From Carex sylvatica (Eukaryota > Streptophyta > Magnoliopsida > Poales > Cyperaceae): DNA of 64,000 nt. The stretch covers positions 186,001 to 250,000 of the forward strand of contig CAXKVR010000107.1 in the NCBI GenBank assembly GCA_964058845.1. The letters are read 5' to 3'. Both the position numbers and the translations under genes were made by a program. This document shows positions 27,601 to 49,300 of this stretch, in pieces (positions within the stretch are counted from its first letter, which is position 1; each line of letters opens with the position of its first letter). The notes under the pieces are model-generated. The model was not told the origin of the DNA. It made no database searches and saw only the letters and a program-made list of their open reading frames with translations.

Positions 27601-30600
27601 TCTTGGAGAAACTCACACAACTTACTCAAACAATAACCCTTCAACAAACTCAAATGGTGGCTATGCAAAACGCTACCATTGCCAACCCTCAACCGGCAAC
27701 ACAACTTGCTGCCATAACCGATGGGTTCATTCATCCCAACCCAATAGACGTAAAGATGGATGGCACAAATTATACCTTCTGGTGTCAAGCTGTAGAGATG
27801 TATGTCAAAGGAAGAGAAAGAATGAAACACCTCACATGGGACCCTGCACCTCCGGATGAAACAAATTTGGGTTTCAGAAAATAGGAAGTGGACGATGTAG
27901 TTGTCAAAGGCTGGCTCATAAACTCACTTAAACCCCGACTAAGAAGCAAATACATTCGACATCCTACTGCAAGAGATGTATAGCAAGCACTCGCAACCAC
28001 CTTTTACGATGACAGTGATGAAGCACAGGTGTTTGCTCTAAATCGGTGGATCTCACATGTCAAACAAGACGGTAAAACAGTAGAAGAGTTCTATGATGAA
28101 TTGCACAGTCTATGGCAAGAAATCGACTTTCGCAGTCCCAACCATATGGTATGTGCTTGTGACATCGAAATGTTTAATAATTTTATTCAAAAAACTAGGG
28201 TGTATACTTTTCTTGATGGCCTTGACGACCGGCTTGATAATATTCGGGCACAAGTGCTGCAAATGAGCTCGTTCCCAACCCTCGAGCAAGCTTATGCACA
28301 TGTCAGGCGTGAATCGAACCGCCAAGGCATAATGATAAAAAACGGGCAAGAGACGGTGTTGAACTCGATTGCTATGGCTACACGAGGATACAAACCACGC
28401 GAGGTAAATACTAGTACTGACAAGTTTTTAAATTTTAAGGATAAATCAAAACTTAAGTGCAGTCATTGTGGTGGTATGAGGCATACTCGAGAGCAATGTT
28501 TTGAAATAGTTGGGTATCCCGAATGGTGGAAAAACCCGAAAAAGAAACAATAATATGATGCTAATAGAGGGTGTACAAGGATGGCAGCAACTGGAGGAAA
28601 CAAAGTTGAGATAGGTTACTTGACCGAATCAAATAGCAGCAAAGATTCTGAGGGACCAAAACTTGCAACTAGTAGCATTGCAGCAATAGCAGCACATACT
28701 AGTAACACCTCAACCGAAGCATCAGGTGCAGGTGAGAGAATAAGTAATTTTGTACCAGGTAATATACATAACTCAACTTTTGATAAAATTTATGAGTCAA
28801 AGTTAGGCAAAGTCCTTAACAATAATTCTGATAATGTCATAAACTCTCAAGATTGGATTATTGACTCTGGAGCAACATATCATATGACACATGAATAAAG
28901 AGATATCATTAATAAGAAAAAAATACAAAAAATGGTATAATAAATGCTAATGGAGGTGTCTATCCCGTAAGTGGGGCTGGAGATATCAAACTCTCACCAA
29001 CTTTGACTCTAAATAACACGTTACTAGTCCCTTCGCTCTCTACTAAGTTGATTTCTGTTGGATAACTCACTCAAGATTTAAACTGTGTTGCACTTATGTT
29101 TCCCTCTCATTATGTCTTTCAAGATCTCCTCACAAAAGAGATAATTGGCCATGTACTAAGAGGGAGGGACTGTATTATCTAGATGATTTGAAGACTGGGA
29201 GGACATATCTCGCAGAAAGTGTGGTAGAAGATAGAAAGAATAAAGTTATGTTATGGCATAAAAGGTTAGGGCACCCGTCGTTTGGGTATATGAAGAAATT
29301 TTCTCCTCATCTTTTTTTGAGAATAAATGAAAATGATTTGTCATGTAAAACGTGTGTTGAAGCTAAGAGTCATATAATTTCTTATATTGACAGTACAAAT
29401 AAATATCTTGTTCCGTTTGATCTTACTCATACCGATGTGTGGGGCCCCTTTCCAATTTGTCAAAATCTGGGTGTAGGTGGTTTTTATTGATGATTGTACT
29501 CGCATGACTTGGCTCTATTTACTAAAGAGTAAGGATAAAGTTACAAAAACCTTTTAATCTTTCTATAGTATGATTGAAACCCAATTTGAAAAATAAATTA
29601 AAATGGTAAGAAGTGATAATGGAACCGAATACGTAAACCAAAATCTTAGGGGATTTTTTAATGACAAAGGTATTATTCATGAGACCTCATGTGTAGGAAC
29701 CCCACAATAAAATGGTATTGCAGAAAGGAAAAATAGACACCTCTTGGAAGGAACTCGGTCACTTTTGTTTGAAAGCAAGGTACCTTCTTATTTTTGGAAT
29801 AACGCAATTACTTTTGCCACATTCCTAAATCAATCGAATGCCTACAAAAGCCAACGATTACAAAACTCCCTTGCAAACTCTATCATCACACATAAACATA
29901 CTATCTAGCTTGAATCTTTCTCCTCGCATCTTTGGATGTACTGTATTTGTTCATGTCTTAAAAACTCATCGTACTAAACTAGATGCCAATGCTGAAAAAT
30001 ATGTTTTTTTGGATTTTTGTTCATTTAAAAAGGGATATAAATGTTTCAACCCATCCACTCGAAGATTCCACACCTCCATGGATGTAACATTCTTTGAAAA
30101 TGAGTTTTTCTTTGCTAAAACCTAGTTTTTGGGTCAGGGAGAGACTGATGCAAGTGACCAAAATATGGACCAAAAAATATTTTTTTAACCCACCAAATAT
30201 AGGCTCGGGTTCCAATCCAGAAATCACAAACTAGTTAGCACCAAACCAATCAGAACCGAACCTGTCAGAACCAAATTCTGAGCCGAATCCACCTAATTCA
30301 CCACCTAATCCGAGCTTCAATCCAGAACCAAATTCTCCTGCAGAACCAGTCAGAAATCTGGTATCCAGACCTGATCTTGAACTCAGATCATCTTCTTCTG
30401 CTAGTCCTGACTTAAATGAATTTGACTTGCATGAACTAAATGAAAAGATAATACAGTCCCAACCCGATGAGCCAATATATCTAGAGGAAGATCCTCAGGT
30501 ATGTGTTTCTCAACCAAGATTTAAATTACCACCTCGTACAACTAGGGGACAACCACTAAAGAGGTATATACAAGAGGATGGTTCGAGTGAGAATATAAGA

Positions 30601-33600
30601 TATCCCATCGCTAATTATACCAGCACTATAAATCTTGTAAAACCATTGAGAGCCTTTGTGAATCAATTAGCTGCTGTCACGGTTCCTAATAAACTAGAAG
30701 ATGCCTTGAAAGATAAAAGGTGGGTCCAAGCAATGGAACTTGAGATGGATGCCCTTAAGAAAAACTGTACCTGGGAACTAGTAGATCTACCAAAGAAAAA
30801 AAATTCGGTGGGATGTAAGTGGGTCTACTCCATTAAGTATAATGAAAAAGGGGAGATTGATAGATATAAAGCACGATTAGTTGCTAAGGGGTATACACAA
30901 GTTTATGGGATTGATTTTCATGAAACATTCTCACATGTAGCAAAATTAAATACTGTGCGAGTTATCTTATCTCTTGTAGCAAACTTTGACTGGCCATTAC
31001 ATCAATTTAATGTGAAGAATGCATTCCTACATGGTGATCTAGAAGAAGAGATCTATATGGATATGCCACCAGGATACATAAATCATGAGTCAAGACCTAA
31101 AGTTTGCAAACTCACGAAGGCGCTGTATGGACTCAAGCAATCACTCAGAGCATGGTTTGGAAGATTTTGCATGGCAATGAAAAGCTATGACTACCAGCAG
31201 GGAGATTCGGATCACACAATGTTCTTCAAAAAATTCGGAGGTAAAATTGCAATTTTGATAATTTATGTTGATGACATGATAATTACTGAAGATGATGATA
31301 TTGAGATTGGGAAACTTGAGAAAAAATTAAGCAAGGAGTTCGAGATGAAAAACTTGGGTGGTTTAAAATATTTTTTGGGTATAGAGGTTTCTCGTAATCA
31401 AATGGGTATCTCTCTGTCTTAGAGAAAATACATCCTTAATCTCCTAAATGAAGTTGGTATGCTTGATTGCAAACCCATAGACACACCAATGGTCCAAATT
31501 ATGAAACTTAGTGATGATCCTAACCAAGTACCTACCAATAAAGAACAATACCAGAGGTTAGTGGAAAAATTGATATATTTGTCACACACCCGGCCTGACA
31601 TAGCCTATGCAGTGGAAGTTGTGAGTCAGTTCATGCATGACCCAAAGGAAGAACACATGGAAGCTGTGATAAGGATTATTAGGTACTTCAAAGGGAATCC
31701 AGGTAAGGGTATAAAATTTGGAAGACATGGACATGTTAACATTGAGGGTTATACTGATGCTGACTGAGCCGGCAATGTGGTTGATCGTAAATCTACATAT
31801 AGATACTTTACGTTTGTTGGCGGTAATTTGATAACCTGGAGAAGTAAGAAACAAAACATAGTGGCCCTTTCAAGTGCTAAAGCGGAGTTCCGAGGTATGG
31901 TAAAAGACATTTGTGAGCTTCTATAGTTGAAAAAGCTGGTCATTGAACTCGGCTTCAAACTAGAAAACCCGATAAAACTATTCTGTGACAACAAGGCTGC
32001 AATTGACATCTCCCACAATCCGGTGCAACATGATAGAACAAAGCACATTGAAGTAGATCGACATTTTATTAAAGAAAAACTTAACTCTAACATTATTTCT
32101 TTGCCATTTGTAAGGTTACATGAACAGGTTGCAGATATTCTTACCAAAGTGGTTGCCAGTAAATAGTTCAACACGGCTTTAGAAAAATAATGATGAAGGA
32201 CATCTACGTGTCATAGGGAGGGGGGGTGTCAAAACTAACACTATGACGTGTTGTAATATTTAAGATCTACAAAAGAAGGAAAGAATAATATGGCAGCAAA
32301 TATGGTCAAAATATGGCAGCAAATGTGGTGCGCAAATATGGCAGGAGATAATATCTAGGAAAAGATTTGTTTCTATGCATTTGATGTAAAATATAGAAAT
32401 GAATAGACTAGAAAAGAAAGAAAATAAAAGACACATTATGACTTATTATTAATACTATTATCTATATAAGACTCATGTCTTCTCATGTAAAACATACAAA
32501 AATATTTGATAAAATAAAAACAAAAGGGAGAGAAGAGAGATTCATGAGAAAGCTTGTATTTGTGTTCTTGTTATGGAATTCTAATAATTCTAACAATACC
32601 TGGGTGCCAATGATATGAGTAGTGACGGCATTATGACCAGTTTTGGCGAGGCCAAAGTTCGCGATCTTAGCACCTAGTCTTGAATCAAGCAGCAAATTAC
32701 TACTCTTGATGTCCTTGTGCACGACACGAGGCCAAGTGTGCTCATGGATGTACTGTAACCCGTGTGCTAGGTCCAAAGCAATCCGCAGTCTTGTTCGCCA
32801 ATCAATCTTGCGGGAAGATGCCGGGTCATGAAGCCACATGTCGAGCGACCCATTCTCTAAGTACTCGTATACCAAGTAACAAGTGCCCGATTCGGAGTCA
32901 ACACAGAAGCCTTCAAGCTTTACCAAATTGGTGTGGTTCACCTACGATATTATTTCGATTGAGACATTACATTAAGATATATATTGGATGTATCTTTTAA
33001 AGACTGAGAAAGCTTCCAAAACATGAATTCCATGTTTCACAAGAAACAGAGCTATCAGTCCTGCTTTTTCTTAAAGATAGCAAAAGAGAAGCCGGTTTCT
33101 CACTAACTGTCCATGTGATCGCAATAATTTCTTTGAATAATATGGGACCTTGCTTTTTGTAGCAATCCAAAATTTTATATTACTTTATGGAAGACGTGGT
33201 CAAAGTCATTAATTTGGGTGCAAAGCTAGTCAACATTTCCAAATTTATTTTATTTTACCATACAGAAAATGAATTGTCCCGACACATAAAATCTTTTTAG
33301 TTGCAAAACAAAACTAATCAACAGTCTGGTTAAAAAGGGAATAATTTTAAACCACAATAAATAAAACACTAACTAATTAATTTAATCTAACCTTTTGAAG
33401 AATCTTGAGCTCTTCACATGCGTTCCACTTCATCTTCTTCACAGCAAAGGTCTCTCCATCAATGCTTCCCCTGTACACTGTCCCCTGAATCAGGTGGCTA
33501 GAATCGAAATTCGCCGTTGCCTCTTTCAATTCTTCTAATTTAAACACTTTATACTTATCTAACCACTCTGTTATATCACTCATGAGCCTCACTTCTGATG

Positions 33601-34528
33601 CATTCCTTCCTAATCTTTGCTCGGCACCACCGCTTCCTTTCCCGCCATTTTCCTCTGACATCCGTTGCCTCATAATAAAGGATCTCCATAAGCAAGATAA
33701 TAGTATCAACATGAAAACAAATAGCGCACCAACAATGCCCAGAGAAATAGCTAACCCGACAATCACACCATTTCTATCTTTCGTCTCTACTACTGACACA
33801 GGAATTGGTGACGGTGCAGGGGCGGCGGCCTGTTCAGATTTATGGTTCAATAATATTGGTGGTGGATTCTGCACGAGGGGAACCAAAATGGTAGCAAATT
33901 CGGCGCTCGTATTTTCCGGACCATTTAATGAAACTAAAGATTGCACGGTGGTTCCGAAGCTAGACGCTACATAGCTGTAATTATCTGATGGTTGCATCAC
34001 GTAGGTGACTAAATTGGTGTAGTTATCAGTTGAGCTTGGGCACTGGCAAAACATTGGAAAAGTCACCATTTGTCCGACATCAAGGTCGGTCGGTACCAGT
34101 TTCGGGTTCACTATCTCCACTGCTTGGTACTGGGTTAAATTCTGAAACTTTCCAGTGGAGACTAAGTAATACGTATCGCCGGAATTTATCTGGTAAGCTA
34201 CCGGGTAGTAAGAGTGGTTGTTGTACTCCGATAGGCAATCACAAGTGAAGGGGATGAGTAGCGGCTGGCCGAGCCCAGGAGTGGTTGAAGTGGTTAGGTT
34301 GCTTGACCGGGCAACCATGAGGCGGCTTACACCGAATAGGTCGCCAACCGAGACTAGGTCCTGTATGCCCTGGGTTAGCCCGGCACGGTACAGTCCATAG
34401 GCCTGGCATGGGTAGATGGTGCGATTTGCTGAGCAGTTGAAACCATCCGGTGAGGCCGGTGACTGAGAATTGACATGGAATATTATTAAGAAACAGGAAA
34501 GTAGTATTATTAAATAGTAAGAATCCAT
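24612..34528 (-). CDS. LysM receptor-like pseudokinase (LYK4/LYK5-like)
   Basis: Three exons on the minus strand: 34528-33392, 32941-32600 and 25019-24612, in phase (379+114+135 codons, 628 residues). Signal peptide 1-21. The extracellular region has the Cys pairs of plant LysM receptors (PCQAY at 40, CDC at 96-98, CQC at 161-163) and about three LysM repeats. Membrane segment about 254-281. The kinase domain runs from about 327. It keeps Lys364 (FAVKKM) and the catalytic-loop Asp456 (HKDIKSSN). It lacks the Gly-rich loop pattern (only IQGTVYRG) and has Asn474 in place of the metal-binding Asp (NFG for DFG), so it is predicted to be a pseudokinase, as in LYK4/LYK5-type chitin co-receptors. 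Plasma membrane. Intron 2 contains a 7.3-kb Copia element inserted at the donor site; exon reading frames are still open. Confidence 0.85.
25314..25699 (+). repeat. 5' LTR of the Copia element
   Basis: Starts TGTCG and ends TTCTAACA, followed at once by the primer-binding site. It aligns along its length with 32227-32595. It contains short ATATGGCAGCAAATATGGC-like repeats (25369-25450). Confidence 0.85.
25700..25711 (+). promoter_or_regulatory. Primer-binding site (tRNA-Met type)
   Basis: TGGTATCAGAGC directly abuts the 5' LTR. This is the standard Copia primer-binding site, complementary to the 3' end of initiator methionine tRNA. Confidence 0.9.
25982..26119 (+). repeat. 21-bp tandem repeat, six full units plus a partial
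   Basis: Units contain ACAACATCTTGTACGGGTC with variation at two positions (TCTGAC, TCGTAC, TCTTAC). As 21 is a multiple of three, open frames appear on both strands; these are not genes. Confidence 0.9.
27077..27196 (+). repeat. Three 40-bp units, each a tetraloop hairpin
   Basis: Each unit starts CGACCCGTGTA and holds a stem-loop: CCGTGTAC-GACA-GTACACGG, CCGTGTAG-GAAA-CTACACGA and CCGTGTAA-GAAA-TTACACGG. The pair closing the loop is C-G, G-C and A-T in turn, that is, paired changes that keep the stem. It lies in the retroelement leader RNA about 400 nt before gag. Confidence 0.7.
27594..32166 (+). pseudogene. Decayed Copia gag-pol
   Basis: Domains in order: gag from 27594 (MDGTNYTFWCQAVEMYVKG, a Copia gag motif), zinc knuckle CSHCGGMRHTREQC near 28461-28502, protease motif DWIIDSGATYHMTH near 28853-28895, GAG-pre-integrase LWHKRLGHPSFGYMKK near 29251, integrase start near 29420, reverse transcriptase with YVDDM near 31266, and RNase H with LFCDNKAAIDISHN near 31978. 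In-frame stops interrupt gag (near 27882 and 27979) and other parts, and frame changes separate protease, integrase and reverse transcriptase. The segment 30125-30426 is a diverged, stop-rich linker. It cannot make a full polyprotein. Copia order (integrase before reverse transcriptase) is clear. Confidence 0.9.
32213..32226 (+). promoter_or_regulatory. Polypurine tract of the Copia element
   Basis: Purine-only run AGGGAGGGGGGG immediately before the TGTC start of the 3' LTR; it primes plus-strand synthesis in LTR elements. Confidence 0.85.
32227..32595 (+). repeat. 3' LTR of the Copia element
   Basis: Starts TGTCAAAAC, ends TTCTAACA, 369 bp, homologous to 25314-25699. Its last base is 4 bp from the end of LysM exon 2, read on the other strand. 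Confidence 0.85.
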
Positions 34529-38521: not shown

Positions 38522-38530
38522 CGAAAGAGG
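38522..38530. repeat. Left 9-bp target duplication of the Mutator-like element
   Basis: CGAAAGAGG, identical to 47683-47691 on the other side of the element. A 9-bp duplication is the hallmark of Mutator transposition. Confidence 0.9.
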
Positions 38531-38744
38531 CGGCCATTTTTATTAATATCCCCTCTGAAAAAGAAAATTTTAAAAATAACCCTGTAATTAATTTTTTTTT
38601 ATTCATGCCCTGACCGCCAGGCCCATGGGCGGCCCAAATTCCTAATGGGGCGCCACAGGAACGGGCGGTCCAAACATCATGTGGGGCGCCCCCCACACGG
38701 GCGGTCCAAATAACATGTGGGGCGCCCCCCCCACGGGCGGTCCA
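38531..38744 (+). repeat. Left terminal inverted repeat
   Basis: 214 bp beginning CGGCCATTTTTATTAATATC. Its inner half carries repeated GC-rich units built of GGGCGGTCCAAA and TGGGGCGCC (three spaced copies), probable transposase binding sites. Confidence 0.93.
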
Positions 38745-38755
38745 CTATGCATGCA

Positions 38756-38762
38756 TATAAAA
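38756..38762 (+). promoter_or_regulatory. Putative TATA box of the transposase gene
   Basis: TATAAAA lies 12 bp inside the left inverted repeat. A likely leader exon ends at 38847 (CGACAG/GTATTA), and a leader intron 38848-39342 would hold the 11-bp repeat array before the ATG at 39349. Confidence 0.5.
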
Positions 38763-38892
38763 TCCCATTTTTTCTCTCTCATGCTCACTCCAACCATTAT
38801 CACTCCCGGCAGCAAAAGCGAGCGAGTTTTTTGGCGAAAAGCGACAGGTATTATTTAAATTATATTTAATTATTTACTAATTAGTCAATTAA

Positions 38893-39240
38893 TGTTCGAT
38901 TACTGTACAATTACTGTAGTATTTACTGTACGATTACTGTACGATTACTGTACGATTACTGTACAATTACTGTACGATTACTGTATGATTACTGTACGAT
39001 TACTGTATGATTACTGTACGATTACTGTACGATTATTGTACAATTACTGTATGATTACTGTACAATTACTGTAGTATTTACTGTATGATTACTGTACAAT
39101 TACTGTAGTATTTACTGTATGATTACTGTAGTATTCACTGTAGTATTTGCCGTACAATTCCTATAGTATTTACTGTTCGATTACTGTACAATTTGCTGTA
39201 AAATTACTGTAGAATTATCGTTCAAATACTGTAAGTGTTG
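38893..39240 (+). repeat. 11-bp tandem array TGTACGATTAC
   Basis: About 25-30 units of TGTACGATTAC and variants (TGTACAATTAC, TGTATGATTAC), mostly on an 11-bp period. Located inside the predicted leader intron of the transposase gene. Open frames here are artefacts of the repeat. Confidence 0.9.
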
Positions 39241-39348
39241 CATTTACCTCTAGCAAGAAATTTTTATTTTTTTATTTGCCATTTATTATTGTACAATTAC
39301 TGTAATACTTATTAAATTTTTGTTTAAATATATTTTGTTAAGGAAAAG

Positions 39349-42300
39349 ATGTTAGTTGCACTGTATGTGGGCGGCAAGCTACAAAAGGGTGTAGATGGCG
39401 TGTATTACACGAAAGATGCTGCATTTGGCTTCGAGATTAATGAAAATACCACATTTCAAGAACTCAAGCATCTAATATACGAAAAGACTGCTGTAAACCC
39501 CAACAGGTATGAAATAGAATTGGCAACACGGATGATAACTCACAAAGGGGTGGGGCGGGTAGACCTTACTTTGTGAGGTTTCCAATAACAGATGCGAATT
39601 TATGGAGAGTTGTGTACACTAAATTTGAGTCTAGTGGGATCTCGGTAATGGACATATATTCAAAGAGGGTTCCCCGTGCTGGGGCTGGACCTTCTAGTGT
39701 GGCTGGGGATGGACCTTCAGGTTATGACAACCAGGGGTACCACCATCACTCTCATTATGACAACCAGGGCTACCACCATAACTCCCCTTATGACAACCCG
39801 GGGTACCACCACAACTCCCCTTATGACAACCCGGAGTACCACCACAACTCCCCTTATGACAACCCGGGGTACCACCACAACTCCCCTTATAACAACCCGG
39901 GATACCACCACAACTCTCCTTATGACAACCAGGGATACCACCACCACTCTCCTTATGCCAACCAAGGGTACCACCACAACTCTCCTGAAAATATTGAAGA
40001 TTTACCACCACCACCCAGACAGACACCCATAATCCCTAGATTTCCAACTATGCCAGAGTCAGGACCGGTACCCGTTAATCGAACTGATATTGATATTGAT
40101 GTTGATGCTATTGATGCCATACCAGAAAATGAAATGGAAACGGGAGATGAATACGAAGGGATCTGGGAATCTGATGACTTATCAGATGGCGATGCAAATG
40201 TACCAGGTTTATCCAGGGAAGAAAAATTCCCAATTAGAGGTCGGGGAAATAAGCATCCGGTCGCCACATTCAACGATACCATAGCTTTTGAAGAGGCAGA
40301 CATTAGTTATTTTGGCCCTCGTGTTGTATACAATGACGAACTTGCCCCAGGGCAACTTTATACCAACATAGATGAACTTATAAAAAAAATTTATGAGACT
40401 CATGTTCACGGCAACTGGGAATGTAAAATACACAAAAGGGATCGAACAAGGTTAGTTGTGCTATGTAAAACTCACCCGCGGTGCGAGTTTTGCCTTTTTG
40501 CAACCCCTGCAGGTGCCGGAGAAGCATGGATTATTAAGAAGTGTGAACCACCCCATACATGCAAGTCTGCATCCACTAGGACAGACCATTCACAGCTGAC
40601 GGCATCACTAATTGCCGATGCAATTGAGGAAGACATTAAGGAGGATCCATCCATGAGCATCAAGGCGGTGGCTAGAACCGTCAGACACAAATACAAATAT
40701 GTAACCCCAAAATACAACAGGCTGTGGAGAGGTCGTGAACTTGCAATTTGCAGAATATTCGGTAGTTGGAAGGATTCATACGGCTATCTGGCACCATTGC
40801 TCCAGGCCATGGCAAGTACAAATGTCGGTACTGTATATGAGATGTGGCATGGCCCCTTTTTTGATAAAGAAGGAGTGCTAATAGAGGGAGCTCAACAATT
40901 CAAGGGCATAGCATGGGCGTTTGGTGCTTGTATCCAAGCTGTGCCATACATCAGACCCGTTATCAGCATTGATGCATGCTTCATGTCTGACCGTTATGAG
41001 GGGAGGTTACTGATAGCATGTGCATATGATGCTGAGAACCAGTTGTTGCCTTTGGCCTTTGCAATTGTTCAGAAAGAGAATGGTGAGAACTGGGGATTCT
41101 TTATGCAATTTTTAAGAAGACGGGTGATTGGGGAAGAAAATTTTTTCTGTGTGATATCAGACTAGCACAAAGGAATAAAATATGTTTTTGATCGTGAAGA
41201 TTACGGTTGGTCAACGCGTACTGGGCAATGTGTGCACAGGTTGTGTATGCAACACGTTGCGGAAAACCTTTCCAAGGCAACCGGAAATGACAAGTGGGTT
41301 CTAGAAACATTTAAACAAAATTGCAGAAAGAAAAAGCCGAGAAGGGTGGTAGAGATGAGTAGAAATTTTGCAAAGGTATATATATTTCAATTGTTTACAT
41401 ATATTATTTTTGGAAGAATATTTTTTTAGTACAATTATTTACTGATATTATTTTATTTTCTGATTTTTTTAGTACATGCCAAAGGCAAATCTCTACTTAA
41501 TGAAGGTGGGCAAAAATAATCCCAGAGATCTAAACGAAGATCCAGCATACGAGAAAATATATCAATCCCATGATGGAGGTTGGCGTTGGGGAATTATGAC
41601 CACCAACGGGTCAGAGTCGCTGAATGCAGTCTTCAAGCAGAGCCGGATGTTACCTGTGGCTGCAATTATAGAAGACACATTCTACAAGTTAAATGCTTGG
41701 TTTCAAGAACGGCGTGCTAAGGCCGCAGAATTAATAAGAATGAACCAGTCATTTTCAACAAGGGTGGAGGAGAAACTAAGACAACACAGGGACAAAGGTG
41801 CAACTATGACCATGATCCCGATGGGTAATGATGGTACTGAATTCGAAGTGCAAAATCCAAATGAATACGTTCCTACCAGTCGCAAACCAGATGGCACTAT
41901 GGAGTTTGTGAAGAGGGCTTGCAAATACGTGGTTAAATTTGGAGATGCCAGGACGGTAACCTGTACATGCCAAGGCCCCCAACTAAGTCATATACCCTGT
42001 AGTCACGTGATGGCTGTATGCCGAGTGAGAAACTATTGTGAGGATCACTATGTTGCTGACATGTATCGTACCGATTACCTTGCTTCCACTTGGGGTGGAT
42101 CTTTCCATTCTTATCCCGATCAGCATGAGTGGCCTACATATGTCGGTGATAGAATACTCCCTTCAGAAGGATGGATAAGAAAAGGGCGAAGGAGACACAA
42201 GCGTGTTGTAATGACCATGGACGAGATGGGTGGTAGGCGACCGTCGGGAAATCGAGCTCGTCGTTCTGTATCCGACAGGCGCACGGCAGGTATGTTTTTT

Positions 42301-42556
42301 GTTATGTTCAGAAGCATTGCAGTTATGTTTTATTCATTTATGATTTAATTATGGTAATAACTGAATTGTATTATTATGTTCAGATGCCATAAACGCAGAA
42401 AATGAAAGAGAAAATGCTAGAGTTGTTGCTGAAGCAACTGGTAGAACACAACCCCCCACTACTGCGAGCCAAGCATCTACAAGTAATGCCGCACCTGCTG
42501 CTGGTACAAGAAAATCTAATCGTTTTTTGGGTTTATTCGGGCGTCGGGGTAGATAA
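39349..42556 (+). pseudogene. MULE transposase, inactivated
   Basis: Segments: 39349 to about 39560 (N-terminal part), about 39560-41375, 41473-42289, 42384-42556, with good GT..AG borders for the last two introns. The N-terminal frame runs to a stop at 39574-39576, but homology (GRPYFVRFPITDANLW) continues in the next frame: a one-base shift in a G-rich stretch near 39545-39560. A second break is TAG at 41163-41165, where CVISD-x-HKGI should be continuous. MULE features: the MuDR-type DNA-binding region about 40320-40570, the DDE core with ISIDACFMSDRYEGR (40958-41002) and CVISD, and the SWIM zinc finger CTCx(9)CSH at 41960-42010. At 39723-39986 an 11-residue unit is repeated eight times. 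C-terminus LGLFGRRGR. No active transposase can come from this copy unless there is readthrough plus frameshifting. Confidence 0.9.
39723..39986 (+). repeat. 33-bp minisatellite inside the transposase
   Basis: Eight in-frame units encoding YDNPGYHHNSP and close variants (YDNQGYHHHSP, YANQGYHHNSP). The block inserts a Tyr/His/Asn-rich low-complexity segment between the N-terminal and DNA-binding parts. Confidence 0.92.
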
Positions 42557-42885
42557 ACTTATTCTTTTGCTAGTGTAAACTAAGCTATGATATTTAATTG
42601 TATTGTTCAACTGTAAGTGTATTGTTGTGCTTTAATTGTATTGCTAAATTCGGAGATGGCAAGGAGGTCAAATAATATAAAAAAAGATATCATTATGCCA
42701 ACACAACCAAAGTCAAACATATAATACTACAGTCCCAAAGTCAAAGTACTACAATCATACAATCATAAATAATAAAAAAAAAAAATATCATAATGCCAAC
42801 ACAACCACAAACATATAACACAACAGTCTCAAACTCAAAATACACCAGTCAGAACTATATCACAAGTAAAAAACCCCTCCAATCA
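42557..42885. other. Spacer between convergent transposase and PMD genes
   Basis: Holds a partial duplication: about 42695-42745 and 42793-42846 share ATGCCAACACAACCA and CAAACATATAA. It presumably contains both polyadenylation regions. Confidence 0.6.
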
Positions 42886-45800
42886 TCATCGTCGTTTCCT
42901 TCCGGAGGGAGACAACCTACGAGGCGCTATTCCTTTCCCAGCCCTGTGCGGCTGCACGCGCCTCTGCGGACTCGCATCTCCTAAGTCCTCCTCCCCTATA
43001 TCCTCATCCTCCTCTCCCGTATACATGTGATGCGTACCTGTACTGGCTGTCCATGTATCAAATGGACCAGCTGACTCTGCGGGTGCCGGGCCTGTACGCA
43101 GCTCCCATGGATCTTCCTCCCAGCTTGCAGCATATGTGGCAGGAGGCGGTGTACCAAATAATGCAGAGACAAAGCCATCTGCAGGCTGAGATGTACTCCC
43201 ACCAGCCTCATAGTCGTGCTCCATCTGCACTCCATATCGTGGTCCGTGGGAGCCAAGGTCCTCAGCATCTGTATCGAACGGGGGCAGCTCATCCACGCTA
43301 AAACTGGGCTCGGCATTCCAACGAGGTGCTCCATCCTAAATTAAAATAATGTCAGTTTTGCTACAAACAAATGACTCAGCAATCAATAATATAAAACGGT
43401 AACTGACAGGCCAAGCTCTACCGGAACTCCATATTTATTTCTGTAAGCGTTCCATCCTTGCGTATTCAACACCCAGTGGTGGAACGCCCAACCAGAGTCG
43501 TCATCTACATAATTAAAAATTAAGTGAGTTACAACAAACAATTGGGCGAAAATAAAATCATTATAAAGTCTCATACTTTTAATATTAACCGGTAAATACC
43601 TGTAGGAGGTGGCGGCATATCATGAGCGTAGATGGCCTCCGGCTGATAATTCGGATTTCGTGGTGCCCTATCTATCTCCCACCAATTGATGTTCTCTCCA
43701 GAATCGCGCAGCATTCCAACGAGGCGGCCTTCAAACCCGCCTGTCTCCACAATTGGTGCAGTGTGCTCGAGCATCTGGCATCCTATGTACCGCCAAGCAT
43801 CCTTCGCCATGCACGCCAGGCTGTGTCCAACTCCTCTCACAGCTGTCAACAGCTGCACACAACATGATTATTACAAAAGTAAGTAATTAAAATTAAAATT
43901 TTTTAATTAAAGTATGTTTCAGTTGTACTTACTGCGCGAGCATTTATCGGACCCCAAGGCATGTAATTGGTAGATGAATCCATCAGTCTACGTCGAAGGA
44001 TGTCGCCATAATGGCCTGTAAGGTAGACTGACGACATGCCCCATTTCTGATACCATACGGCATATCTCAAATCTCCGGGACCAGCACCCAACGATGCAGC
44101 TGATGGCGGACTCCATAAGTGATGCTCCGGATTTCTAGCCCGGTTGTACTCCAAGATGAAGTGCTGGCTCCAATCGACTTTGCTCTTGGTGTGTGCCGTA
44201 CTGCAGGTACAATTAATTAGAAAATATGTAAATGGTGGCATTATTAAGGTGATAATGAAATTAAGTAGATACTTACTTGTGAAACTTGTCAGTATCATCC
44301 TTACCCATCAGCGGGTACTCCGGGATAAAAGCATCTAAGCCAAACTGTCGAGATACACGATCCGGGTAGTGGTACTCCACTATCCAGTAACAAATGACCG
44401 GTCCCTGATAATACCATAGTCGTATCTGCTCTGGATCTAATGTCAGTCGGCTCAGAAGGGATGCACGATAAAATGGACGATACGGAAACCAGTCGATATT
44501 CGCATCTCGGAGCATCTGGAGCTGACCTCGGACATAAGAAACTCCCCTGCCCGTCTCTTCATAACTCAGATGACAGCCCCATATGGCACCGTACGCGGGG
44601 CATCTGTCTGGGTCAGGAACTCTCCATCGGGGATGAGGTAATGGTATAACTGGTCGATTTACGGGTAGATGTGACCACGACCAATGCTGGAGCAGAAGAA
44701 GCGGTCCAAAAATCTGTCTATTCTTCACCTGAAAATTTAACTTTAAATAAGAACTCGGTTCTTCTTATCCAACCTTCAATAACAACGTATATTAATACAG
44801 ACTTACCAGACAAGCATGACACAGGCCTCTGTACAAGTGGGCGAGAACAGCTCCACCCCAGTTCCATCTCGATTCATTCTCCATATTCCTCAGCAGAGAG
44901 AGATACATAATCGGGACCGCGTCACCGCTGGAATCCTCGAACATGACGGCACCACACAAATCTAGTACGTACGCCCTAGTATACCTGCAATAGAAAATAA
45001 TCATTATAAATAATTGAGATTTGTTGATGAACTACTAACTTACTTTAAAAATTATGATGGTACCTCCTGACTGCCTCAATGTCAGTAGTCTCAGGAAATA
45101 TCTGATTCTGGAAGAAGTGAGTCCGAAGTGCCTTTAGAGAAATACAGTACCCAGAATACCGGAACTCCTCCACCTCCCCCTTCTTCTTCTTATATTTCTT
45201 CTGCAGATTTTTCGGATCACACCCTAACAACTCCGGTATCATCCTCTGCAGCTTTGGATGGTCTGAGATGCCACCTATGGGGTCGCCATCAATACGTAAA
45301 CCCCATAAGGCGCTCACATCACCAAGGGTGACTGTCATCTCCCCGACCGGGAGATGAAATGTATGGGTCTCAGGTCGCCATCTCTCTGCTAGACCATGCA
45401 TCAGAGACTGATCGATCTTACTCTGCGGCATCGTGGCAACCTGATACAACCCAAGGTTCAAGAGGTATCGCTCCATTTCTTTATTGGGAACGAACGGAAT
45501 CTCAGACCTGCGGTGCCTCACCGTAAGCATGACATCATCCTGTATTTATTATCAATTTGTCAGACTCAAATCGTGCCAATTTTTTAGTATTATTTACATT
45601 AAGTATAAAAATCACGTACCTCAAGAGATGCCAATGAGACGCGGTGCTTAACATGATGGGTCCATAGAAGAAGACTAAATGTGTCAGGATCTTGCACGCC
45701 ATCTGTAAAACCGCCCTGAGACGACGGACCCGCTCCAATCGGATCCTCAAATCCCCTACCAGTCGTATCCTCATATGACGACTGGCCCTCTCCAGTCGGA

Positions 45801-45907
45801 TCCACCGAGGATCCGCCCGCTCCAGACGGATGCACAGCATCTGGAGCCGCTCCACCTGGACCCGCTGCAAGCTCAGGTCGTACTCCCCACCGTCTAGACC
45901 TGGGCAT
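42886..45907 (-). CDS. Plant mobile domain (PMD) protein, transposon-borne
   Basis: Eight exons with GT..AG borders and matching phases: 45907-45620, 45539-45064, 44984-44807, 44728-44277, 44200-43933, 43852-43600, 43504-43404, 43335-42886. Sum 2466 nt, 821 residues without a stop. The N-terminus is Gly/Ser-rich (1-70). The PMD core follows, with hallmark stretches FHLPVGEMTVTLGDVSALWG (in exon 2), YTRAYVLDLCGAVMF, WNWGGAVLAHLYRGLCHACL, GPLLLLQHWSWSHLPV and VEYHYPDRVSRQFG. The tail is acidic (TGEEDEDIGEEDLGDA), then basic (RRLSPSGRKRR), a possible nuclear signal. Host relatives MAIN/MAIL1 act in the nucleus in transposon silencing and genome stability; the role of transposon-borne copies is unknown. 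It lies head-to-head with the right terminal repeat, which probably supplies its promoter. Exon limits are my reading of splice sites. Confidence 0.85.
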
Positions 45908-47468
45908 ACTACATTAACCAAAAAATATATATTAATAAATAACAACTTAAGAAAATCAAATTTTATTAGCAATTTTAAATAATTTCTAAATATTTTCAAC
46001 CAAATTCAAACCCTAATTCAACTGCAAATTCAAGCAATTGAAACTATACAATGGTTAATTAATAATAATAAACTCCTAATTATATGATATTAATATATTC
46101 AATGATTATACAATAAATATAATATATTATATTATTTTTATAATAATTATTAAATATATTAATAATATAACATATTAATTATATAATTAATATAAAAATT
46201 ATAAAATAAGTATTAATCATAATATACAAATTATATAATATTATAATAATAGGTATTTAATATATTAAGAATATAATATATTAATTATATAATTAATATA
46301 AAAATTATTGTCGAATTTACTTTTTAAAATTAGACTTATTGTATATGCTTGTATAAGTGTCAGACGTACAGAAATGACCCATTTTTATAACTTATAATTG
46401 TAAAATTTTAAAATTAACAAGTTACAGGCTGATGCTTATCAAATAAATACTACTGAAATTATGCTAGAATATATTAATTATTATATGAAAAAAGAAAACT
46501 ACAAAAACATACAGTATCTGTTTTATTTCCAATAAAATTGATCATTATCTTTTGCAAATCATATAATTAGATTTACATTCAAAATGCATGTAACAATTTA
46601 AATAATAAAAAAAAAATGCATGCAAAATTTTGCAATAAAATAAAAAAACAGAAAATTTACTTGAAAAAAAAAATATGAAATTTTTAGACAACTTTTGATA
46701 AATTTCAAAATAATTTGTTTTACTTGAAATTAATTTGTATCGATATAGACATGTATTTCGTCAACTAACTTCAAACATCCCTCAACCCTAAATTTTTTAA
46801 ACCATAAATCCTAACTCTAAATTTTTTAATAATTCAAGCAATTGATCCGTAATCATCCTAAAATTAAACCATAAACCCTACATTTTTAAGCAATTTACAA
46901 CCATAAACCCTAAATAACCCTATCACATCCAAAAAATTCAAACAATTTCATCATAATAATTTTACCATAATAACCATATCACATTCAATTCGACCAATCC
47001 GGACAATTCAACTAATTCGAGCAATTCAACTAATTCGAGCAATTCAACAAATTTGAAACAACTCTAATTGAACAAATTCAACCATTATCGAGCCACAATT
47101 CAACAAATTCAACAATTAAACCAATTCAATCCAAAACCCTAACCATAACCCTAAATTAAAAAACTTATTGAATCGAAAAAGAAATTACATGAGAAGCTCG
47201 GTGCAGAGGCAGTGGTAGTGCTCGGTGCAGCGGTCCTCGGTGAAGCGGCTCGGTGAAGTGGCTCGGTGAAGCACCTCGGTGAAGCGGCTCGGTGAAGCGG
47301 CTTGAGGGAAAGGAGAGAGAACAAGATGGAGAGGAGTTGGCCGGAGAGGGGAGGTGGGGGTGGGCGGGACTGGGCGGCACTGGGCGGGTTTTTTTTTTCG
47401 GTTTGGTGCGGAGCAGAAGAGGCAGAGAGGAGGAGAGGAAGGGTTCGGCTGGGATTTAATATCCCCTT
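45908..47468. other. Upstream region of the PMD gene inside the element
   Basis: Very AT-rich between 46030 and 46760 with ATAATATATTAATTATATAA-like repeats. From 46980 to 47060 ATTCGAGCAATTCAACTA-like repeats. Then a 13-15-bp repeat of GGTGAAGCGGCTC (about 47214-47305) and a GC-rich segment next to the right inverted repeat. No protein is supported; promoter and leader of the PMD gene are likely here. Confidence 0.55.
47214..47305. repeat. Short tandem repeat GGTGAAGCGGCTC
   Basis: Six or seven imperfect units of 13-15 bp close to the right terminal repeat. The Arg/Pro-rich frames across it on the minus strand are not conserved motifs. Confidence 0.8.
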
Positions 47469-47682
47469 TGGACCGCCCGTGGGGGGGGCGCCCCACATGT
47501 TATTTGGACCGCCCGTGGGGGGGGCGCCCCACATGATGTTTGGACCGCCCGTTCCTGTGGCGCCCCATTAGGAATTTGGGCCGCCCATGGGCCTGGCGGT
47601 CAGGGCATGAATAAAAAAAAATTAATTACAGGGTTATTTTTAAAATTTTCTTTTTCAGAGGGGATATTAATAAAAATGGCCG
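47469..47682 (-). repeat. Right terminal inverted repeat
   Basis: Inverse complement of 38531-38744 with only small length changes in the G/C runs. Contains the same three GC-rich units. Confidence 0.93.
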
Positions 47683-47691
47683 CGAAAGAGG
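47683..47691. repeat. Right 9-bp target duplication
   Basis: CGAAAGAGG, identical to 38522-38530. Confidence 0.9.
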
Positions 47692-47699
47692 CCAAGTCA

Positions 47700-49300
47700 A
47701 ATTTTTTAAAAGTAAAATGTTGTAGATAGCATAAGACATTTTGTGCTATAACTTCAAAAATATACTATATAAACTTCTAATTTTGATTTAACTAGCTTAA
47801 TAGATTTCAAAAAAATTATTAATATCCAAAAAAATTATAAAATTACAAAATCTACCCAACTTTTCGTATGAATTCGAAATCTATCACTTTCGGTGACTAA
47901 ATAACTGGACCAAGCCCTACTTTCTAATTATTTAGTCATTGGATAGAGAAATTGGTCCGGTGACTAAATAACCGGTTTCAAAAAATACAACCGGTGACTA
48001 AATAACCGGTTTCAAAAAATACAACCGGTGACTAAATAACCGGTTTTGTGTTTTTCTTTTCTTTTTTTAACAAAACATAAATTTATTTAATTTTTTTTTG
48101 AAATATTACAAATATTTAATATATTTCTTTGAAAATAGATGGAATACAATATAATTTAATTTATTAGAAAGACTGTGACAAATAACTCAGATCAATATTT
48201 TCCAGTCCGATTTTTTCACGGTTGTAAGAAAAAATAATATATTTCTTTGTGTTATTGAAAACAAAATATGCTTTGAATGTGAGTTATTGATTGCGGTTCA
48301 AAAGTCACTTCTAGGTAATATAAAAAATATTGTGATCTTCTAGTACATTTAACTTCTAAAAAGTTGTATCTATTTTGAGAAATCTTTTTGAATAACAATC
48401 ATTAAATAATTTAAAGTTTTTATTTTTTCAAAAATATATACAAATTTTTAGAAATTAAATGTACTAGAAGAATAACAATATTTTATGTATTTATCTAGAA
48501 ATAACTTTTGAACCGCGATCAATAACTCACATTCAAAACATATTTCCTTTTTTCCAATAATACATAAAGAAATATATTAATTTTTCTTACAGCCGTGAAA
48601 AATTCGGTCTGAAAAATATTGATCCGAGTTATTTATCATAGTCTTTTTAATAAATCAAATTATATTGTATTCCATCTATTTTAAAAAACAAAAATTAAAC
48701 ATTTCTAATATTTCAATACAAAAAATTAATTAATTAAAAAAAATTCTGTTTTGTAAAAAAAAACACAAAACCAATTATTTAATTACCGGTTGTATATTTT
48801 TAAAGCGGTCATTTAGTCACCGGACTAATTTCTGGATCTGTTGACTAAATAACCAGAAAGAGGGGCTTTGTCCGGTTATTTAGTCATCGAAAGGGGCAGA
48901 TTTCAAATTTCTTTGAAAAGTTGAATATATTTTGTAATTTTATAATTTTTTTGGGTATTAATAAAAATTTCGGCAATAAATTAGTTATATGATGACCTTG
49001 TAAAACATCAATTTTTACTATTATTTAATTCTTTGACTATTTTTTTATTTATGAAAAATGGTAAAAAAATATCTTAAAAATAAAAGAAAATTATCAATAG
49101 TTTAGACTATTTTTTGTCACTTTTTATAAATCATCAAAAATAGTAAAAAAGTTTAAAAATACTAAAACTTGATATTCTACATGTTCATTATATAACCAAT
49201 TTCTTAAGCTATTTAGATCAAAGTTTGAAGTTTATACGATATATTTTTGAGACCGTAACACAAAAGGCCTCATGGTATCTCACCTATGCCTTACTCATTT
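47700..49300. repeat. Large fold-back repeat, about 1.6 kb
   Basis: Two arms of about 700-800 bp are inverse complements around an axis near 48400-48450. Matching pairs include GTGACTAAATAACCGG (three tandem units, about 47960-48045) with its complement near 48780-48900, AAAATTATAAAATTACAAAA (47826) with TTTTGTAATTTTATAATTTT (48931), and the outer pair around 47755-47785 and 49210-49245. No coding capacity. RNA of either strand would be a long hairpin. The Mutator-like element sits at its left edge. Confidence 0.85.

What the first reader, a model, noticed from the sequence alone, without database searches (positions are those of the whole stretch)
38531..47682. Bounded Mutator-like element with an intact PMD gene but a dead transposase
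The element is fully delimited (214-bp near-identical inverted repeats, perfect 9-bp target duplication). The transposase gene has a frameshift and a stop, while the convergent PMD gene reads through 821 codons over eight in-phase exons. If insertion is recent, as the inverted repeats suggest, the element moved with transposase supplied elsewhere while its PMD gene stayed whole. That suggests the PMD protein serves the element, for example by countering MAIN/MAIL1-type silencing in which host PMD proteins take part.
Basis: partly seen in the sequence, partly recalled or inferred. Interest (0 to 1): 0.88.

Follow-up and report, generated by a model that had tools for sequence, protein, structure and literature searches.

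The report
Decayed two-gene Mutator transposon with PMD
This is a worn-out copy of a jumping gene, probably from a sedge, that carries besides its own transposase a second gene related to plant gene-silencing factors; both genes are damaged here, but in the family both were kept working by natural selection.

Summary
The element is real and exactly bounded: 38531-47682, 214-bp inverted repeats with one mismatch, perfect 9-bp duplication. The claim that set it apart fails. Its PMD gene has a 1-bp deletion at the end of exon 7, so exon 8 is out of frame unless a weaker upstream donor is used. The transposase has one frameshift and one stop, as reported. The broader idea survives on other grounds. 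On internal branches both genes are under purifying selection (PMD 0.36, transposase 0.27); between three subfamilies PMD is at 0.39, its core at 0.26. Of 60 PMD-MULE pairs found, 57 are convergent. So PMD is a working gene of the family. PMD in plant MULEs, often antisense, and the anti-silencing idea are already in print (PMC6446971, PMC5418596; passages read). What the PMD protein does is unknown; counteracting host silencing is my leading guess, not shown.

The parts
38522..38530 (.). left 9-bp target site duplication
   Evidence: identical to 47683-47691
38531..38744 (+). left terminal inverted repeat, 214 bp, starts CGGCCATTTTTATTA; carries 36-bp subterminal repeats
   Evidence: same start, with at most a few differences, in the other copies
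38745..38847 (+). putative transposase 5' untranslated exon, with a TATA-like stretch at 38756 and a GT donor after 38847
   Evidence: direct reading; same donor context in L030 and B751; no RNA evidence
38900..39304 (+). tandem array of an 11-bp unit with core TTACTGTA in the putative 5' intron of the transposase gene
   Evidence: 23 of the 26 exact matches in the window lie here; 2.65 expected in the whole window
39349..41375 (+). transposase exon 1 (MULE domain), with a 1-bp deletion near codon 62 and a stop at codon 600
   Evidence: Pfam MULE on the window's own frame; lesions against L031; limits
41473..42289 (+). transposase exon 2 with SWIM zinc finger
   Evidence: limits and the L031 gene
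42384..42556 (+). transposase exon 3 (C-terminus)
42557..42885 (.). gap between the two convergent genes
   Evidence: poorly conserved between subfamilies (62-68% over 42600-42890)
42886..43335 (-). PMD exon 8: acidic stretch and basic tail; out of frame here because of the exon 7 deletion
43408..43504 (-). PMD exon 7, with a 1-bp deletion at its 3' end next to the splice donor
43600..43852 (-). PMD exon 6
43933..44200 (-). PMD exon 5
44277..44728 (-). PMD exon 4 (PMD domain)
   Evidence: Pfam PF10536
44807..44984 (-). PMD exon 3
45064..45539 (-). PMD exon 2 (start of PMD domain)
   Evidence: Pfam PF10536
45620..45907 (-). PMD exon 1, with the start codon
47469..47682 (-). right terminal inverted repeat, 214 bp
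47683..47691 (.). right 9-bp target site duplication

Best explanation
The feature is a decayed copy of an autonomous, two-gene Mutator-like element in a plant whose nearest named relatives are sedges (Carex). The family has long inverted repeats that presumably act as promoters (inferred from maize MuDR) and two genes read towards each other: a MULE/SWIM transposase and an eight-exon PMD protein of about 820 aa. SHOWN: both genes were kept by purifying selection while lineages were multiplying, and both drift at a near-neutral rate on terminal branches. SHOWN: in the window copy both genes are lesioned, and none of its lesions is shared with its closest fetched sister. INFERRED: it inserted with working genes, or with genes supplied in trans (not resolved), and decayed afterwards. 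INFERRED, about 0.45: the PMD protein acts in trans to keep the element expressed, by competing with or diverting the host PMD (MAIN/MAIL1)-PP7L pathway. About 0.3: it is instead a transposition or integration helper, as MURB of MuDR is thought to be. The remainder is something else. The confidence given here is for the structure, decay and selection part, not for the PMD mechanism.
For: Boundaries, duplication and repeats. Pfam MULE and SWIM on window frames and PMD on window exons 2 and 4; on sister proteins MULE, SWIM, Transposase_mut and the full PMD domain at 126-515. Lesions per aligned kb alike in 19 fetched copies. Codon model on 15 of 19 PMD copies: internal 0.36 (about 0.23-0.55), terminal 0.91, LRT p 9.5e-5; on 13 of 19 transposase copies: internal 0.27 (about 0.19-0.37), terminal 0.95, p 3.7e-10. 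Plain counts agree: PMD fixed 13 nonsyn/14 syn against singletons 324/123, Fisher p 0.014; transposase 12/21 against 270/89, p 9e-6. One copy each of subfamilies A, B, C: PMD 0.386 (0.32-0.46), transposase exons 1-2 0.30 (0.25-0.36). L030 has both genes open. C475 has no internal stop in either gene; B751 none in PMD or transposase exons 1-2, exon 3 not resolved. 57 of 60 PMD-MULE pairs convergent; 56 of 66 close transposase relatives have a PMD partner, 54 convergent.
Against: No expression, methylation or transposition data were available. The tree is star-like, so the internal-branch estimate leans on few branches, mainly the stem of the four youngest copies. Transposase segments were exchanged between subfamilies, which strains a single tree. 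PMD exons 1 and 8 show no clear constraint (0.63 and 0.82). PMD is the better preserved in one respect: 79% of its possible bases are aligned in the 19 copies against 68% for the transposase (by hand), though some fetched pieces were cut short. The two 1-bp deletions could in principle be assembly errors. 10 of 66 close transposase relatives show no PMD partner. No result bears directly on what the PMD protein does.
Confidence: 0.85

Rival explanations
1. One reading: this copy has an intact PMD gene and a dead transposase, so it moved with foreign transposase and keeps PMD because PMD alone serves it.
For: PMD exons 1-7 are open up to the deletion and the splice sites are canonical; a cryptic donor could rescue frame; PMD is aligned over a larger share of its length than the transposase in the 19 copies.
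Against: 1-bp deletion at exon 7; PMD lesion rate like the transposase's; terminal PMD dN/dS 0.91; window-private codon changes are few (12 in PMD, 7 in transposase) and its lesions are absent from L029.
Confidence: 0.07
2. PMD is a passively captured host gene (Pack-MULE type cargo) without benefit to the element.
For: MULEs often carry host sequence (PMC6446971, passages read); exons 1 and 8 show little constraint.
Against: Eight-exon gene conserved in three subfamilies with dN/dS 0.36-0.39; convergent pairing recurs in this genome, also in the clearly different C35-type family.
Confidence: 0.05
3. PMD is a transposition or integration helper, functionally like MURB of maize MuDR, not a silencing antagonist.
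For: Same two-gene convergent layout as MuDR (PMC3440606, passages read); mudrB apparently required for integration (PMC6446971, passages read); PMD constraint similar to the transposase's.
Against: No sequence relation to MURB was tested; known host PMD proteins act in silencing and gene expression (PMC5418596 and PMC7156037, passages read).
Confidence: 0.3
4. PMD is under selection as a new host gene (domesticated) rather than for the element.
For: Host PMD genes exist and matter (PMC7156037, passages read).
Against: Copies drift near-neutrally on terminal branches (0.91) and are scattered, duplication-bounded and multi-copy.
Confidence: 0.03

Closest known systems
PMD-carrying plant MULEs (Dupeyron et al. 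2019, PMC6446971, Table 1 groups 42 and 45-50; passages read)
   Same: MULE transposase with SWIM finger, 9-bp duplication, TIRs of tens to hundreds of bp, PMD as another ORF, 'often antisense' or 'PMD in antisense for most of them'
   Different: That table gives presence only; no selection test or copy-by-copy decay was seen in the passages read. The group to which this family belongs was not determined.
MULE transposase-PMD fusion proteins (Ikeda et al. 2017, PMC5418596, passages read)
   Same: PMD carried by a MULE; the authors already speculate that MULEs use it in anti-silencing
   Different: Here PMD is a separate convergent gene. In my tree of 35 PMDs it falls with Poales proteins (99/98), away from the rice and Paspalum fusions (98/95).
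Maize MuDR (mudrA/mudrB; PMC3440606, passages read)
   Same: about 215-bp TIRs and two convergent genes
   Different: Second gene is PMD; no comparison with mudrB was run
Arabidopsis VANDAL21/VANC anti-silencing (PMC5735166, passages read)
   Same: Possible functional analogue: second element gene plus tandem short motifs upstream of the transposase
   Different: No DUF1985 or DUF287 match in the PMD protein at E up to 0.01; long TIRs present; no evidence of demethylation
MAIN/MAIL1-PP7L host silencing proteins (PMC7156037, passages read)
   Same: PMD domain
   Different: Host genes; the L029 PMD is 36% identical over 49% of its length to an Arabidopsis PMD-phosphatase protein and 37% over 39% to a protein named MAIN-LIKE 2

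Membership tests
Mutator-like element (MULE) | 8-11 bp target duplication next to terminal inverted repeats | tested here: met
   9-bp duplication, 214-bp TIRs
Mutator-like element (MULE) | MULE transposase domain with SWIM finger | tested here: met
   PF10551 and PF04434 above cut-off on the window's frames and on the L031 protein, with PF00872
Mutator-like element (MULE) | transposition activity | not testable with these tools
   Multi-copy family with target duplications shows past activity only
PMD-carrying MULE | PMD domain encoded inside the element | tested here: met
   PF10536 on window exons 2 and 4; 214 bits on the L029 protein
PMD-carrying MULE | PMD antisense to the transposase, as tabulated for several plant groups | tested here: met
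   window; 57 of 60 pairs; 54 of 56 pairs
MULE transposase-PMD fusion protein | one polypeptide with both domains | tested here: not met
   genes lie on opposite strands
PMD-C clade (MAIN/MAIL) | PMD embedded in the PMD-C clade | tested here: inconclusive
   Tree of 35 PMDs lacks labelled PMD-A and PMD-B references
MuDR | mudrB-related second gene | not tested
   no mudrB sequence was fetched
VANDAL | VANC with DUF1985/DUF287 | tested here: not met
   Pfam scan of the 820-aa L029 protein lists PMD only at E up to 0.01
Host silencing antagonist | releases silencing of its own element | not testable with these tools
   needs expression or methylation data

The most novel reading that the evidence does not exclude
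The PMD protein is a sequence-specific anti-silencing factor of the element, a counterpart of VANC, and its target is the TTACTGTA tandem array in the transposase 5' intron. The core is found as a cluster in subfamilies A, B and C although repeat unit and number differ.
Probability: 0.12. Interest if true: 0.75.

Novelty: new member of a known kind. Interest (0 to 1): 0.38.

Why it matters
What transposon-borne PMD proteins do is open. This family gives a clean test bed: three subfamilies with full-length PMD, a selection signal like the transposase's, and dead copies that serve as a neutral control. It turns a published speculation (element-encoded PMD counteracts silencing) into something that can be tested on an element in which PMD is shown to be maintained. 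The single copy in the window adds nothing special.

Tried and rejected
Intact PMD in the window: rejected. Insertion dating by inverted repeats: rejected on principle. First impression of a half-element swap at the gap between the genes (with L030 alone as the A copy): corrected. The 97-99% tract shared with subfamily B covers about 40.0-42.0 kb (window coordinates) in L030/L031 but only about 40.0-41.0 kb in the window and L029; 39.7-40.0 kb was not scored; direction not determined.

Idea that some close transposase relatives lack PMD: it arose because the PMD family search scored only 117 of 610 candidates, and was mostly dropped. Ten of 66 still show no PMD partner; one of them (C71) is cut by its contig end.

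PMD tree: 36 rows were prepared and 35 entered; the C332-family row of this genome failed because my open-frame pick gave only 136 aa. Root at midpoint.

Literature: searches. No paper testing selection on MULE-borne PMD was seen in those listings; that is not proof of absence.

Rows dropped: I pasted 117 of 143 rows (the other 26 are second pieces of the same loci), 66 of 88 rows (second pieces dropped); only the upper part of the lists, with several second pieces omitted. One search lists 42 inverted-repeat matches; I fetched whole or part of 19 elements of subfamily A (the window's included), plus the 1-kb L048, not all. Of the 19 copies, 15 (PMD) and 13 (transposase) had at least 55% of codons and entered the codon model. 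Stops were masked as missing. Lesion counts are stops and frameshifting indels only; large deletions and splice-site changes were not counted. The intervals come from profiles in which branch lengths were only rescaled.

Failed scripts: searches (crashed on saving; stop codon in the codon table), repeated.
Full report
What is there. The window holds one complete Mutator-like element at 38531-47682. Its 214-bp terminal inverted repeats differ at one position, and a perfect 9-bp target duplication flanks it. A 9-bp match at exactly the two ends of a 214-bp inverted repeat is not chance, and the same layout recurs: of 15 elements checked, this one included, 11 have a perfect 9-bp duplication, 3 have 8 of 9 and 1 has none. 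The genome held is 64 Mb in 950 contigs. The nearest named relatives found are sedges: Carex rostrata, 88% over residues 150-700 of the transposase, and Carex littledalei, 61% over 69% of PMD. The species itself was not established.

Gene structure. On the + strand lies a transposase in three exons with a MULE domain and a SWIM finger (full-length L031 protein). On the - strand lies a PMD gene in eight exons with AG/GT introns; the domain covers residues 126-515 of the 820-aa L029 protein. The two genes converge on a gap at about 42.6-42.9 kb.

The claim that fails. The joined window PMD exons give 2462 nt and run into stops in exon 8. In an alignment of 14 copies, the window alone lacks one base at the 3' end of exon 7; in L029 and L030 the gene is 2463 nt without internal stops. 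So the window PMD is frameshifted in its last exon unless a GT 14 nt upstream, weaker by inspection, serves as donor. Among the 19 copies the stop recurs only in the distant copy L046 and the two deletions are private; L029, 98.4% identical, has none of the three. Decay after insertion explains this copy, and no foreign transposase needs to be invoked, though it is not excluded.

Decay compared. Over 19 fetched copies (window and L029-L046, with L046 and L047 joined; the 1-kb L048 left out), PMD carries 58 disabling changes (stops and frameshifting indels) in 36,927 aligned bases and the transposase 70 in 38,712. That is a ratio of 0.87; a rough Poisson interval worked by hand is 0.61-1.23. 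PMD is free of such lesions at full length in 2 of 19 (L029, L030), the transposase in 2 of 19 (L030, L031), both together in one (L030). On the other side, 79% of the possible PMD bases are aligned against 68% for the transposase (by hand); some pieces were cut by contig ends or by my fetch, so I draw nothing from it.

Selection. I fitted a codon model with separate dN/dS for internal and terminal branches. PMD, 15 copies: internal 0.36 (about 0.23-0.55), terminal 0.91 (about 0.77-1.08), p 9.5e-5. Transposase, 13 copies: internal 0.27 (about 0.19-0.37), terminal 0.95 (about 0.78-1.16), p 3.7e-10. Plain counts agree: changes fixed in the four young copies are 13 nonsynonymous to 14 synonymous for PMD and 12 to 21 for the transposase, against singletons in old copies of 324 to 123 and 270 to 89. 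Between one member each of subfamilies A (L030), B (C751) and C (C475), PMD dN/dS is 0.386 (0.32-0.46) and that of transposase exons 1-2 is 0.30 (0.25-0.36). Within PMD, exons 2-4 are at 0.26, exons 5-7 at 0.38, while exon 1 (0.63) and exon 8 (0.82) are not clearly constrained. In C475 neither gene has an internal stop; in B751 PMD and transposase exons 1-2 have none, exon 3 was not resolved, and the exact PMD stop was not placed in either. So PMD was maintained while the element multiplied and is released on terminal branches, just as the transposase is. This is the pattern of a working element gene.

How general. A family search gave 117 PMD loci and 150 MULE loci, both lower bounds. Sixty PMD loci lie within 9 kb of a MULE domain where about 5 would be expected by uniform placement (4.2%), and 57 of the 60 are convergent, 2 tandem, 1 divergent; 57 of the 117 have no listed partner. 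Of 66 close transposase relatives, 56 have a PMD partner and 54 of these are convergent. At least one clearly different family shares the layout (C35 type: 900-aa open transposase frame and PMD exons on the other strand), and by frame lengths and spacing probably others do. Eight C35-type loci are identical over 411 bp.

Mosaicism. The transposase core of L030/L031 is 97-99% identical to subfamily B over about 40.0-42.0 kb (window coordinates), that of the window and L029 only over about 40.0-41.0 kb, whereas window PMD is 79-87% identical to B and 85-95% to C (coarser view). Segments have been exchanged between subfamilies; the direction was not determined.

How it most likely works. From MuDR (PMC3440606, passages read) I infer that each TIR drives the gene next to it. 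The transposase cuts and inserts; dead copies such as this one would move only in trans. For PMD, two readings stand. (a) It acts on the host PMD-PP7L silencing pathway for the element's benefit, the speculation printed by Ikeda et al. 2017 (PMC5418596, passages read) and repeated in a review (PMC8616336, passages read). (b) It is a transposition helper like MURB. I put these at about 0.45 and 0.3. Sequence evidence does not separate them, and the structure prediction gave no usable fold match.

Against what is known. PMD in plant MULEs, often antisense, is tabulated by Dupeyron et al. 2019 (PMC6446971, Table 1, passages read), and MULE-PMD fusions are described by Ikeda et al. 2017. In my tree of 35 PMDs the proteins of this family group with Poales PMDs and apart from the rice and Paspalum fusions, but without labelled PMD-A and PMD-B references the clade could not be assigned. 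The element is therefore a new member of a known kind. What is added is the selection and decay comparison on a multi-copy family, the interchange of transposase segments, and a short-motif array, TTACTGTA, in the putative transposase 5' intron. It has 6 to 30 exact copies in 16 of the 19 A copies (0 in L038, L041 and L044, whose fetched sequence did not align to the window across that stretch), 4 in B751 and 8 in C475, and 1 in the C35-type element. The array is only a lead.

Noticed in passing
38900-39304; also L050 and L051: Tandem array of an 11-bp unit with core TTACTGTA in the putative transposase 5' intron; the core is clustered in subfamilies B and C too, but not in the C35-type element. 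Recalls VANC target repeats.
   Followed up: partly
G000 contigs C35, C190, C321, C387, C584, C665, C700, C843 (L049): Another convergent PMD-MULE family with eight loci identical over 411 bp and, in C35, an open 900-aa transposase frame; either a very recent burst or duplicated contigs.
   Followed up: partly
about 40000-42000 (window, L029, L030, L031 against L050): Patchwork of transposase segments shared with subfamily B, of different extent in different copies.
   Followed up: partly
39689-40018: 33-bp repeats inside transposase exon 1 encode a YDNPGYHHNSP-like peptide repeat; copy number seems to differ between copies.
   Followed up: no
family copies, e.g. transposase codons 360, 774, 931; PMD codons 475, 766: Stops recur at the same codons in copies that do not group together (7 of 47 distinct PMD lesions and 15 of 51 transposase lesions are shared by two or more copies), perhaps repeated C-to-T change at methylated sites.
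   Followed up: no
48115-48699: Nested inverted repeats (138 bp 88%, 61 bp 89%, 41 bp 93%) just right of the element, probably a foldback or MITE-like insertion.
   Followed up: no
33377-34528 (-): LysM receptor-like gene (LYK4/5- or NFP-type LysM domains) about 4 kb left of the element.
   Followed up: no
30427-31422 (+): Open frame that looks like a Copia-type reverse transcriptase fragment (recognised from recall, not searched; frame).
   Followed up: no
P0034, P0056, P0069, P0086: Predicted proteins with both PMD and MULE domains in Apium, Dendrobium, Actinidia and Vitis, beyond the grasses and Amborella named by Ikeda et al. 2017; gene models not checked.
   Followed up: no
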